Origin: Planctomycetales bacterium 10988
GTDB taxonomy: Bacteria; Planctomycetota; Planctomycetia; Pirellulales; Pb10988
Length of the DNA: 64,000 nucleotides
Assembly (NCBI GenBank): GCA_009664345.1
Contig: CP043547.1
Span: 3,748,709 to 3,812,708 of the forward strand
Direction of reading: 5' to 3'
Shown: one piece after another, positions 30,212 to 45,481 of the stretch
Layout of the letters: the number at the start of each line of letters is the position of its first letter
Numbering within the stretch: position 1 is the first letter of the stretch
The notes under the pieces: model-generated
What the model saw: only the letters and a program-made list of their open reading frames with translations
Database searches by the model: none
What the model was told of the DNA's origin: nothing
Program-made: the position numbers and the translations under genes

Positions 30212-32320
30212 TTAAGAAGAAGGGTTGCCTTTGCCCTTGGAGGTTGATTTGCGGTTGGGGCGGTAGCCTTGGGTGGAGCGGTTGCGTGAACGCCGCTTTT
30301 TGGAATAGCCGCCGTTTGTTGATTCGTGGCTTTCATTGGAAACGTTGTTGTTTTGGGCTGCAGACGAACCGTTGCCGCGTTGCCGTTTTGATTTAGGACG
30401 GTTGAAGGATTGATTTGCTTTTTTGCGGCGTTTATCAATAGCAGACTTAGGCGGACGGCTAGGAATTAAACAATCACAACCATCGCCGATTAAATCTTCT
30501 CGCTCGGCCTGAACCAAAGCTTGCCGGACTTCAAAATAATTTTCCGGTTTAAAGAATTGTAAAAGTGCCCGTTGAAGTTTTCGATCGCGTAAATGTTTGG
30601 CGACTTCAACCGGCCGCATGGTCATCGGATCAAGCCCTGTATAAAACATACAAGTCGCGATATCAAACGGGCCGGGGATAAAGTCTTGCACTTGATCGGG
30701 TCGATAGCCATTTCGTTTTAAATAAAGAGCAAGATCAATCATCGCCCTTAAATCACTACCGGGATGGCTGGCAATGAAGTAAGGAATTAAATATTGTTCC
30801 TTGCCCGCTTCTTCAGAAGCTTTATGAAAGGCTTTACTAAATTCCGTAAAGTCTTCACTGCTTGTTTTCTTCATCAATTTTAAAACTTGCGGGTCGGTAT
30901 GTTCGGGAGCAACTTTTAAATATCCACCGACATGATGTTCGACCAACTCCCGCATGTACTCCGGATCGCGGCGCGCCAAGTCCATACGAATGCCGGAGGC
31001 GACGTTCACTTTCTTCACGCCTTCAACGGCCCGCGTTTTTCGCATCAATTGAATGAGCGGACCGTGATCGGTGCCAAGAAGTTTACACACTCGCGGATGA
31101 ACACAACTCAGGCGGCGGCACTTCGCTTCAATATCTGGCCGCGAACATCGCATCTGATACATATTCGCGGTCGGCCCGCCGATGTCGCTGATGGTTCCTT
31201 TAAAATCTTCTTCTTGGGCGATTTGTTCGACTTCACCGAGGACCGATGCTTCCGACCGACTTTGAATGATGCGACCTTCATGAGCGGTGATCGAACAGAA
31301 GGTGCAACCGCCGAAACATCCTCGCATGATTTGCACGGAGTGTTTTACCACTTCAAAGGCAGGAATCCGCTGATTGCCATAAGCAGGATGCGGACGCCGG
31401 GTGAAGGGCAAGCCATAAACATAGTCCATCTCGGCTTGATGAAGTGGCAGAGCCGGCGGATTGACGACGATCTTTTCCGGCCCGTGGTATTGAACAAGGG
31501 TCTTTGCGTGATGCGGATTCGTTTCGCGATGGGCAAGCCGCGTCATATCGGCGAAGGCTTCTTTGCTCGCTTTAATTTCATCAAAGGAAGGAAGTTGAAC
31601 GACGTTTTCAGTTGGCGGCTCTTCTTTCGCTCCGATGCGATAAGCGACCCCGCGGAGATCGCGAAGGTCTTCCACCGACTTTCCTTCATCGAGTCGTTTG
31701 GCAATATCGACAATCACCCTTTCGCCCATGCCGAAGACGACCAAATCCGCCTTACTATCGAGCAGAATGGAGCGGCGAATTTTGTCCGACCAATAATCAT
31801 AATGGGCGATCCGCCGCAGACTGGCTTCGACTCCGCCAGCGATGACGGGCACGCCTTTGTAGGCTTCGCGGGAACGTTGGCAGTAGGCGAGCGTCGCCCG
31901 ATCCGGTCGGCGACCGATTTCCGCATTGGGACTATAAGCATCATCATTCCGCACTTTCCGATTTGCAGTATAATGATTGATCATGGAATCCATATTGCCG
32001 GCACTGATGCCAAAAAAGAGCCGGGGACGGCCGAAGGTTTTCCAGGCATCGCACGAATGCCAGTCAGGTTGCGAAAGAATCGCCACGCGAAAACCGGCGT
32101 CTTCCAGCACCCGACCGAGTAAAGCCATCGCAAAACTAGGATGGTCGACATACGCATCTCCGGTGACGAAGACAATATCGACCTCGTCCCAACCCCGCTT
32201 TTGCATCTCTTCCGCTGACATCGGCAGGGGATCGAAGGACATAGGGCGAGCCTTCACAGGCGACACGGTGGACGGCTGTGATAGAATCGGCAAGGTGGCA
32301 ATGCGTGGAGTATCCGGCAT
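30212..32320 (-). CDS. ygiQ: YgiQ-family radical SAM protein (UPF0313)
   Basis: A 702-residue protein. The N-terminal part (~30-290) matches the YgiQ cobalamin-fold region with [12 protein letters not shown]. The radical SAM cluster motif [11 protein letters not shown] lies near residue 335 and provides the CxxxCxxC ligands for the 4Fe-4S cluster. The last ~75 residues are Lys/Arg/Ser/Asn-rich and disordered. The ~25 residues before S-F-D-P-L-P-M-S extend beyond the usual family start, so translation could begin at the internal Met 27. The substrate of YgiQ is not known. Confidence 0.92.
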
Positions 32321-32539: not shown

Positions 32540-33004
32540 ATGAGTACGGATCACGAGGCTGAGGAACTTGCCAAGGAGATCGCGAGCAACTGTCTGGCGG
32601 TCCGCCTCCGGGCGATTACTCGGATGATCACGAATCTCTTTGCTAGGGAATTTCGAGGGCAAGAGATGACGATCAGCCAATTTCATTTGATCATTGCCAT
32701 TCAGCGAAATGGTTCCGTACGGCCAGGAGAGCTTGCCGAAAAGCTCAAATATGACCCATCGACGTTAAGCCGGAATTTGGAGCGAATGAAAGCCAAGGGC
32801 TGGATCGAAACCATTGCCGAGCCGGATGCTAGGGCTGCCCCAGTGCAATTAACTGCCACCGGAAAAGCCGAACTCAAAAAATCTTATGCTGCCTGGAAGC
32901 GGGCCCAATCCCAAACCGAGGAACTTCTTGGTCCTCTCGGAAGTGCTGCTATTAAAGAGACTTACAGCAAAGTTATCAGTCTCTCCATTCCCGATGCAGA
33001 CTAA
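32540..33004 (+). CDS. MarR-family regulator
   Basis: A 154-residue winged-helix repressor. The DNA-binding part is clear: M-T-I-S-Q-F-H-L-I-I-A-I, G-E-L-A-E-K-L-K-Y-D-P-S-T-L-S-R-N-L-E-R-M, then the wing and L-T-A-T-G-K-A. No Cys pair suggests oxidant sensing, so a small-molecule ligand is likely. It is followed at 33157 by a cupin gene whose leader holds a near-perfect MarR-type operator, so autoregulation or direct control of the cupin is likely. Confidence 0.87.
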   Translation: MSTDHEAEELAKEIASNCLAVRLRAITRMITNLFAREFRGQEMTISQFHLIIAIQRNGSVRPGELAEKLKYDPSTLSRNLERMKAKGWIETIAEPDARAAPVQLTATGKAELKKSYAAWKRAQSQTEELLGPLGSAAIKETYSKVISLSIPDAD

Positions 33005-33101
33005 TCTTATTGCGACTTTCTAGGAAAGACGGTTCGCAAAAAATTTCAAAACCCCTGAGATCGGAGTGGAAAAGCATCTTCTTATTGTATATACATCTTT
33101 T

Positions 33102-33123
33102 AATAGTTGTACTTACAACTATT
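33102..33123. promoter_or_regulatory. Probable MarR operator
   Basis: Two exact 10-bp arms (AATAGTTGTA and TACAACTATT) separated by CT. Size and symmetry fit MarR dimer sites. A shorter palindrome, TGTATATACA, lies at 33086-33095. Both lie between the marR-type and cupin genes. Confidence 0.7.
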
Positions 33124-33156
33124 GGTATTTTCTTGTTCTCAAATCAGGAGATGAAG

Positions 33157-33627
33157 ATGAGTCCAACCAGTTCGACTTTGGAAAGCAGGCGTTTTGCTGA
33201 GGGAATTCATGTAGAAACGGGAAGTTTTGAGCAATGGGCGGAGCATTCTTTTGAACATCCGTTGCTCAAAACGCCTGCTCACGGGAAGCTATTTTTAAAA
33301 GATTTGCTCGCGGTAGATGGGGCGGAAATTTCTATCAACCAATTTCCACCGGGCTGGGCGATGCCTTTTTTGCATGCTCACAAGCGGAATGATGAAATTT
33401 ACGTCATTCTACAAGGCGAAGGAGAATTTTATCTGGATGGGAAAATTTTCCCGGTGAAACAAGGTTCCGTGGTGTTGGCACGTCCCAACGCTTCGCGCAG
33501 TCTGCGGAATCGCGGGGACGAATGGCTGACGTATCTCTGTCTCCAAGTCGCCTCCGATTCAAAGATCGGCGGGACCACCTCCGATGGAAAAGCCGTTGCT
33601 GGCAGTCCTGGTTGGCAAGAGAAATAG
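33157..33627 (+). CDS. Cupin-domain protein
   Basis: About 156 residues. The ATG at 33157 is chosen over the ATG at 33151 because AGGAG at 33146-33150 would touch the latter but is 6 nt from the former. Single cupin fold: P-F-L-H-A-H-K-R-N-D-E-I-Y-V-I-L-Q-G-E-G-E-F gives the H-x-H and Glu metal ligands, and V-L-A-R-P-N-A-S-R-S-L-R-N the second motif, with Ser in place of the usual His. It could be an enzyme (dioxygenase or isomerase) or a binding protein; substrate unknown. Probably the target of the upstream MarR. Confidence 0.8.
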   Translation: MSPTSSTLESRRFAEGIHVETGSFEQWAEHSFEHPLLKTPAHGKLFLKDLLAVDGAEISINQFPPGWAMPFLHAHKRNDEIYVILQGEGEFYLDGKIFPVKQGSVVLARPNASRSLRNRGDEWLTYLCLQVASDSKIGGTTSDGKAVAGSPGWQEK

Positions 33628-33647
33628 CAAGCCTTTTCGCTTCTCAG

Positions 33648-34070
33648 CTATTTCGCACCGACCGGACAATTCCGTCTCCAAAGTCGTTGCAAGCGCTGCG
33701 AAACAAGATAAAGAAGGGAAGAGGTCGGCTGGTTTTCCCCTTTGGAACCGGTCGATCCTTTCTCTTTTTCTTGAGAACTCGACGAGCTAGATTTCCGCAA
33801 TCCTTTGTCATAGACAACTTTACGTTCGGATCGCATCAAGACAACCTTGGCTCGGGCGATTTCATTGAGCAACTGTTGTGAAGCATCGCTCCGCTGGCCG
33901 ATTTGAAAATTACGGATCAGAGCCATCCGCTCGTCGGCGGCTTCTTCAATGATTTCTTGATCCGATTCGAAGAGTTTCAGGCCCAGAAGTTGGTAGGCGG
34001 TTGGCTGTTCGCCATCGGCGATCGTTAAATGGAGCCAGTCTCGATAGGGATTGAATGTTGCTTGTGACAT
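33648..34070 (-). CDS. Planctomycete J-like domain protein
   Basis: About 140 residues from the ATG at 34070, chosen because GGCGGGGAG lies upstream at good spacing. Residues ~5-95 match the DnaJ-like module common in planctomycete signalling proteins (N-P-Y-R-D-W-L, Y-Q-L-L-G-L, F-E-S-D, L-L-N-E-I-A-R-A-K, V-V-Y-D). The HPD motif of true J domains is absent. The tail is Ser/Lys-rich and then basic. Normally this module sits on protein kinases or membrane proteins; here it is free-standing. Function unknown. Confidence 0.7.
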   Translation of the reverse strand: MSQATFNPYRDWLHLTIADGEQPTAYQLLGLKLFESDQEIIEEAADERMALIRNFQIGQRSDASQQLLNEIARAKVVLMRSERKVVYDKGLRKSSSSSSQEKEKGSTGSKGENQPTSSLLYLVSQRLQRLWRRNCPVGAK

Positions 34071-45306: not shown

Positions 45307-45481
45307 GCGCCAGTCGATAAGCAGCATATCTTAGCTGGCAAAGACAAGCTTTTCATTGTAAAAACAAATATTTTAAATTCCATGAATTTTATAATAAGCA
45401 ATAGATTTAATAGCATTTACCTTTTATACTTTCGTTACACTTACAACTAAATCTCTATTTCAATCATTACAGAGGCGTTCC

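What the first reader, a model, noticed from the sequence alone, without database searches (positions are those of the whole stretch)
33086..33157. 22-bp operator-like palindrome between a MarR gene and a cupin gene
AATAGTTGTA-CT-TACAACTATT is an exact 10-bp inverted repeat in the cupin leader, with a second palindrome TGTATATACA 6 nt upstream of it. A MarR gene directly precedes it. This gives a testable regulator-operator-target unit, possibly responding to an aromatic or other small compound handled by the cupin.
Basis: partly seen in the sequence, partly recalled or inferred. Interest (0 to 1): 0.55.

Follow-up and report, generated by a model that had tools for sequence, protein, structure and literature searches.

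The report
Paired MarR operators before cupin gene
Two neighbouring DNA palindromes in front of a small cupin gene are very probably docking sites for the MarR-type repressor encoded next door; related repressors in many other bacteria keep the same kind of site although the gene beside it changes.

Summary
In detail: AATAGTTGTA-CT-TACAACTATT (33102-33123) and TGTATATACA (33086-33095) lie between a MarR gene (32540-33004) and a cupin gene (33157-33627). They are two copies of one box, GTTGYATATRCAAC, in abutting 22-bp units (22 bp centre to centre). A matrix built from 145 boxes beside related marR genes (own locus excluded) ranks them first and second in the 64-kb window. Of 100 other distinct marR loci, 88 carry a box within about 150 bp of marR (shuffles: at most 4 per side); among the 55 fetched after the consensus was fixed, 53 do. 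So they are very probably operators of the adjacent MarR. The own genome shows no comparable second site among those examined and no box before marR, so this looks like a one-target switch. Partner genes vary: a 4Fe-4S/SCP2 protein in 54 of 101 loci, cupin in two. The regulator's only cysteine is invariant (99 of 99 rows) and aligns with Cys10 of the oxidation sensor MosR. A thiol or electrophile signal is therefore my first guess for the trigger, but that is inferred. Ordinary in kind; the conserved box with changing partners is the interesting part.

The parts
32540..33004 (+). MarR-family regulator, 154 aa, single cysteine (C18); proposed repressor
   Evidence: ORF; MarR_2 2.8e-12; AlphaFold2 model, mean pLDDT 94.3, winged-helix MarR fold; C18 invariant in 99 of 99 covering rows
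33080..33101 (.). operator box 1, TCTTATTGTATATACATCTTTT (palindromic core TGTATATACA, 33086-33095)
   Evidence: matrix score 20.1, rank 1 in the window; only mismatch-free TTGYATATRCAW in the genome
33102..33123 (.). operator box 2, AATAGTTGTACTTACAACTATT (exact 10-bp inverted repeat)
   Evidence: matrix score 18.4, rank 2 in the window; 12/12 to the box consensus; unique in the genome
33146..33150 (+). AGGAG, likely ribosome-binding site of the cupin
   Evidence: read; not tested
33157..33627 (+). small cupin protein, 156 aa; proposed target
   Evidence: Cupin_2 1.9e-12; HxH and E of cupin motif 1 present, R at the place of the usual motif-2 His; closest solved sequence 3cew, 7.9e-20

Best explanation
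The two palindromes are tandem operators of the MarR encoded directly upstream. A MarR dimer binds each 22-bp unit; because the units abut (22 bp centre to centre, about two helical turns) two dimers would sit on one face of the DNA. In that state they keep the cupin promoter or leader closed. When the regulator is inactivated the cupin is made. The most likely trigger is a change at the single conserved cysteine (C18, N-terminal end of the dimer-forming helix), as in the oxidation sensor MosR, so oxidants or electrophiles rather than a classical aromatic ligand. Shown here: the palindromes, their identity with a box conserved beside related marR genes, their rarity in the genome, and the conserved cysteine. 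Inferred: binding, repression (not activation), cooperativity, the signal, and what the cupin does.
For: Box near marR in 88 of 100 other loci (78 upstream, 68 downstream, 58 both; shuffle means about 1.5, maximum 4 per side, 100 shuffles; 1 of 100 inside the marR coding stretch). In the 55 loci fetched after the consensus was set: 50 upstream, 42 downstream, 53 either (recounted from the listing). Matrix from 145 sites of other loci ranks the two own boxes 1 and 2 in 64 kb (20.1 and 18.4; next 10.7); best other place in the fetched own-genome loci 14.0. Recognition-helix residues S74, S77, R78 are the same in 101 of 101 rows (partly by construction for the 55 loci found with the pattern TLSRN[LV][EDG]RM). 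One MarR of this group in the own genome at E<=1e-8 (9 of 18 candidates scored). Cupin relatives of the phylum that lack this MarR next to them lack the box: at least 10/12 in 1 of 19 loci. Cysteine: 99 of 99 covering rows, paired with MosR Cys10 by profile alignment and by the start of two structure alignments (offset 8). Redox or detoxification partners: NmrA, HlyD+MFS, RND, SDR, tautomerase; FeS/SCP2.
Against: No binding or expression data. The own boxes score at the low end of the family: 10 of 145 training sites score below box 2 and 20 of 145 below box 1. 12 of 100 other loci have no box by this criterion, among them L038, the only other MarR-cupin neighbourhood found; its two weaker candidates (10/12 and 11/12) lie 158 and 201 nt after marR, outside the counted stretch. 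One cupin relative without this MarR (L068) scores 11/12. The own marR has no box upstream (best 8/12 in 300 bp), unlike 78 of 100 relatives. No sigma-70-like promoter or terminator was found at 32900-33700. The own protein lacks MosR's second cysteine (A20) and the other cysteine present in 70 of 101 rows (own A66).
Confidence: 0.8

Rival explanations
1. Same operator, but the MarR is a classical ligand-released repressor (aromatic acid, phenol or similar); C18 is structural.
For: High-ranking fold matches include ligand-responsive MarR proteins such as BpsR, CouR, HpaR, PcaV and HosA. Saro_0803 and HpaR models match weakly, below their cut-offs.
Against: C18 is invariant in 99 of 99 covering rows while overall identity to the own protein is about 30-40%, and it aligns with a redox cysteine of MosR. 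Shared fold says nothing on the signal.
Confidence: 0.4
2. The box is bound by a regulator other than the adjacent MarR.
For: TTGTATATACAA is also given as a TreR (trehalose operon) box in Bacillus licheniformis (PMC11356801, passage seen), so the sequence alone does not identify a protein family. Cupin relatives sit beside TetR or HxlR genes in other genomes.
Against: The box follows this marR group across partner genes and phyla, and cupin relatives beside other regulators lack it in 18 of 19 loci.
Confidence: 0.07
3. The 22-bp inverted repeat acts as an RNA hairpin in the cupin leader (attenuation or mRNA stability).
For: If transcribed, 33096-33160 folds with the repeat as an 11-pair stem: -16.2 kcal/mol, z -2.70, 1 of 200 shuffles as stable.
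Against: Any perfect DNA palindrome folds as RNA. In relatives the box also stands upstream of marR (78 of 100) and its usual centre TATATA leaves no loop of its own; box 1 has only a 10-bp self-complementary core.
Confidence: 0.06
4. The MarR activates, rather than represses, the cupin from these sites.
For: Boxes lie between the genes and no promoter was recognised, so the geometry does not decide.
Against: Most characterised MarR proteins are repressors (established knowledge); downstream boxes in relatives lie close to the partner's start (median centre 29 nt after the marR stop, 68 loci), a position that suits blocking.
Confidence: 0.1

Closest known systems
MosR (Rv1049) of Mycobacterium tuberculosis, PDB 4fx0/4fx4
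   Same: Best sequence match among solved structures (profile E 2.3e-23); MarR fold; cysteine at the place of C18 (MosR Cys10); described as an oxidation sensor that regulates an oxidoreductase (PMC5823404, abstract and passages seen).
   Different: MosR forms a Cys10-Cys12 disulphide; the own protein has one cysteine and A20 in place of Cys12. MosR's operator was not compared; no paper giving its letters was found.
OhrR-type thiol MarR repressors (Xanthomonas OhrR, B. subtilis OhrR, SarZ)
   Same: Fold (2pex Z 14.8, 1z9c Z 14.6, 3hsr Z 14.4); a cysteine near the start of the first long helix (OhrR Cys22).
   Different: Sequence similarity is weak (2pfb E 0.00019); register of the cysteine relative to the B. 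subtilis and SarZ alignments is off by two residues if no gap is assumed.
Saro_0803 of Novosphingobium (resveratrol-released MarR)
   Same: MarR regulator with a 22-bp operator at an inverted repeat near the -10 box (PMC10046596, passages seen).
   Different: Repeat GCAATA------TATTGC; model match far below its cut-off (27.3 against 200 bits).
3cew, uncharacterised cupin (Protein Data Bank)
   Same: Closest solved relative of the cupin (7.9e-20), with the HxH...E of motif 1.
   Different: No function is recorded for it; gene context not examined.

Membership tests
MarR family regulator (protein) | MarR winged-helix domain above curated cut-off | tested here: met
   MarR_2 47 bits (cut-off 27), MarR 40.7 (24.6)
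MarR family regulator (protein) | MarR fold | tested here: met
   model pLDDT 94.3; E. coli MarR 5h3r TM 0.74/0.81; Z 15.0 to 5h3r and 4fx4
MarR operator | palindrome near regulator or target gene, conserved at related loci | tested here: met
   88 of 100 other loci
MarR operator | bound by the MarR protein | not testable with these tools
   needs a binding assay
MarR operator | autoregulatory site upstream of marR (usual, not obligatory) | tested here: not met
   best 8/12 in 300 bp upstream
MosR-like oxidation sensor | cysteine at MosR Cys10 | tested here: met
   profile alignment; structure alignments start at offset 8, so C18 meets residue 10 if no gap intervenes
MosR-like oxidation sensor | second cysteine at MosR Cys12 | tested here: not met
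   A20 in own protein; no cysteine among the listed residues of that column (A 83, G 11, V 4, S 1, gap 2 of 101)
MosR-like oxidation sensor | oxidation releases DNA | not testable with these tools
   needs protein
named NCBIfam MarR equivalogs (MarR, BilQ, OhrR of Vibrio, HpaR, FabT and others) | score above curated cut-off | tested here: not met
   none of the 13 listed families reached its cut-off
cupin superfamily | Cupin_2 domain above cut-off | tested here: met
   47.1 bits (27.2)
cupin superfamily | classical four metal ligands (HxH, E, motif-2 H) | tested here: not met
   HxH and E present, R where the motif-2 His stands in L077; motif recalled

The most novel reading that the evidence does not exclude
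This MarR belongs to an undescribed group of single- or two-cysteine MosR-like thiol sensors found in planctomycetes and, more thinly, other phyla, whose operator GTTGYATATRCAAC is kept while the adjacent target gene is exchanged (4Fe-4S/SCP2 protein, NmrA, desaturase, efflux pump, tautomerase, cupin). In this genome the sensor lost its usual 4Fe-4S partner and its autoregulatory box, gained a tandem double operator, and became a dedicated redox/electrophile switch for a cupin; the cupin was recruited separately in a second lineage.
Probability: 0.4. Interest if true: 0.5.

Novelty: new member of a known kind. Interest (0 to 1): 0.35.

Why it matters
It turns one palindrome into a testable rule: a regulator group with a recognisable operator, so targets can be read from sequence in poorly studied planctomycetes. 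If the cysteine is the sensor, the partner genes (several of unknown role, such as the 4Fe-4S/SCP2 protein and this cupin) become candidates for an oxidant or electrophile response. It is also a neat case in which a regulator and its operator stay while the neighbouring gene changes.

Tried and rejected
Genome-wide regulon: TTGTANNTACAA with up to 1 mismatch is not enriched (106 forward, control 114); RTTGYANNTRCAAY with up to 1 mismatch gives 127 against 94, a slight excess, with 5 mismatch-free places of which one is box 2. Own-genome loci fetched were scored with the matrix (61 loci, some overlapping, three holding the known site): best other place 14.0. Most of the 127 places were not fetched, so a weak second target is not excluded.

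Weak boxes in the window at 45351 (10.7) and 45430 (7.7) lie in an AT-rich gap between a clpC-like gene and an ELWxxDGT-repeat gene (names from reading the ORFs); judged chance.

The cupin as query in genome contigs found nothing. The exact own 20-mer in 57 relatives is found in the own genome only. No genome of the own family was among those searched as relatives, so closely related orthologous loci could not be compared. The 4Fe-4S/SCP2 protein has no full match in the own genome, only a 64-residue piece at 5.4e-6.

RNA hairpin, foreign regulator and activator readings were considered and ranked low (rivals). Structure search rows: ligand-type and thiol-type MarR proteins score alike, so fold does not decide the signal.

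Literature, all in the held library: the box letters in several spellings gave 3 papers, one with TreR, the other two by listing only; planctomycete MarR operators, MarR with epoxyqueuosine reductase and SCP2 (none), MosR with planctomycetes (none), MarR with cupin, Rv0880 and others, PDB codes, MosR. I first took 4fx0 for Rv0880 from memory; and the titles corrected this to MosR (Rv1049).

Full report
WHAT IS THERE. Between the stop of a MarR gene (32540-33004) and the start of a cupin gene (ATG 33157) lie TGTATATACA (33086-33095) and AATAGTTGTACTTACAACTATT (33102-33123). Aligned, both are TTGTA-NN-TACA boxes; taken as 22-bp units they abut exactly (33080-33101, 33102-33123). Local shuffles give two boxes of at least 10/12 in 0 of 2000. 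The 22-bp palindrome occurs once in the genome, and so does a mismatch-free TTGYATATRCAW, which is box 1.

RELATED LOCI. The MarR protein was searched in 392 genomes of the phylum (47 with a match at E<=1e-8, own included) and 396 of the order (18 at E<=1e-12, own included); the best matches gave 46 loci. An alignment of 12 proteins fetched 80 more from named GTDB genomes. Of 126 loci 101 are distinct. The box consensus GTTGYANNTRCAAC was drawn from the first set. In that set 28 of 45 other loci have at least 10/12 within 130 bp upstream and 26 of 45 within about 150 bp downstream, 35 either. In the 55 distinct loci fetched afterwards: 50 upstream, 42 downstream, 53 either (listing). Together, of 100: 78, 68, 58 both, 88 either; shuffle means 1.47 and 1.45, maximum 4 in 100 shuffles; inside the marR coding stretch 1. 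These loci are related to each other, so the counts are not independent trials. Two of the twelve loci without a box, L148 and L159, have CTGTATATACAG, one base off in each arm.

THE OWN BOXES. A matrix from 145 sites of other loci puts the own boxes first (20.1) and second (18.4) in 64 kb, the next at 10.7. Among the fetched own-genome loci the best other place scores 14.0. They are nonetheless weak members: 10 and 20 of 145 training sites score lower. Of 101 loci only the own and L161 (15 bp apart) have two boxes of at least 9 bits within 70 bp on one side of marR. The own marR has no upstream box, whereas most relatives do.

PARTNER GENES. By blastp against four queries within the fetched loci: a protein like P0001 (weak Fer4 plus SCP2 domain) in 54 of 101; a fatty acid desaturase, divergent, in 9; cupin in 2 (own and L038); AlkZ-like in 1; 35 unassigned. 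Of the unassigned, nine genes from seven loci examined by Pfam are NmrA (L096, L154, L160), HlyD plus MFS (L138), tautomerase (L163), short-chain dehydrogenase (L161), RND transporter (L108) and metallo-beta-lactamase fold (L165) - eight loci counting all named here; L130 had no match. The Gimesia-like pair L013 and L096 have close MarR proteins and boxes on both sides but different neighbours (4Fe-4S/SCP2 and NmrA); the L096 contig ends 882 bp after marR, so the usual partner could lie beyond. In L038 (genome G210) MarR is followed by an alpha/beta hydrolase, an overlapping cupin 39% identical to the own, and a convergent pirin. In a tree of 98 rows the cupin label needs two changes, but both rows are long branches, and the own row joins another long branch, so its place is unsure.

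THE REGULATOR. One cysteine, C18, in the own protein; that column is C in 99 of 99 covering rows of 101. The best solved relative is 4fx0/4fx4, which is MosR (titles). The profile alignment pairs C18 with the first cysteine of ECACYTT, Cys10 by the spacing to Cys12 and Thr14 quoted in PMC5823404 (passages). MosR senses oxidation through a Cys10-Cys12 disulphide; the own protein lacks the second. A further cysteine column (own A66) is C in 70 of 101 rows. MarR proteins that sense through a single cysteine are on record, for example ForJ (PMC12421854, passages), though there the residue is elsewhere. The model is confident (pLDDT 94.3) but fold neighbours include both ligand- and thiol-type regulators.

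THE CUPIN. 156 aa, closest solved relative 3cew. HxH and E of motif 1 are present; at the usual motif-2 His the own protein has R, as have most relatives shown. In the phylum it was found in 20 of 392 genomes at E<=1e-10, own included. Relatives stand beside TetR (L063 tested) or HxlR (L074) genes elsewhere. They lack the box: at least 10/12 in 1 of 19.

MECHANISM. The simplest reading is a one-target switch: MarR dimers on two abutting operators keep the cupin off, and a signal releases them. Binding and direction are inferred. The trigger is my inference from the cysteine and the partner genes; I hold it at about even odds against a ligand. No promoter was recognised, so which step is blocked is open.

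VERDICT. What was added is that the two palindromes are one box, that the box is a family trait, that its partner changes, and that the likely signal is thiol chemistry rather than an aromatic compound.

Noticed in passing
L015:77-1411 (minus strand) and 53 further loci: A 445-aa protein with QueG-like/4Fe-4S similarity in the middle and an SCP2 domain at the end is the usual neighbour of this MarR group (54 of 101 loci). It reached no NCBIfam cut-off; I found no description of it with MarR.
   Followed up: partly
L016, L021, L023-L026, L031-L033: In one family (f44) the same MarR group stands divergent to a fatty acid desaturase; five of these nine loci lack the box, so the operator may have drifted there.
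   Followed up: partly
window 45351-45451: Two weak box-like sites 79 bp apart in the AT-rich gap before a 1182-aa ELWxxDGT-repeat gene; matrix scores 10.7 and 7.7.
   Followed up: partly
window 33157-33627 and relatives: The cupin and most relatives shown have R in place of the motif-2 His, leaving HxH and E as likely metal ligands.
   Followed up: partly
window 54989: The only other exact 10-bp inverted repeat with a short spacer in the window, AAAGGCCGTG...CACGGCCTTT, GC-rich and terminator-like in form.
   Followed up: no
window 30212-32320 (minus strand): A 702-aa radical SAM protein (Radical_SAM_N, DUF3362), divergent from marR; no box stands in the 300 bp before marR.
   Followed up: no
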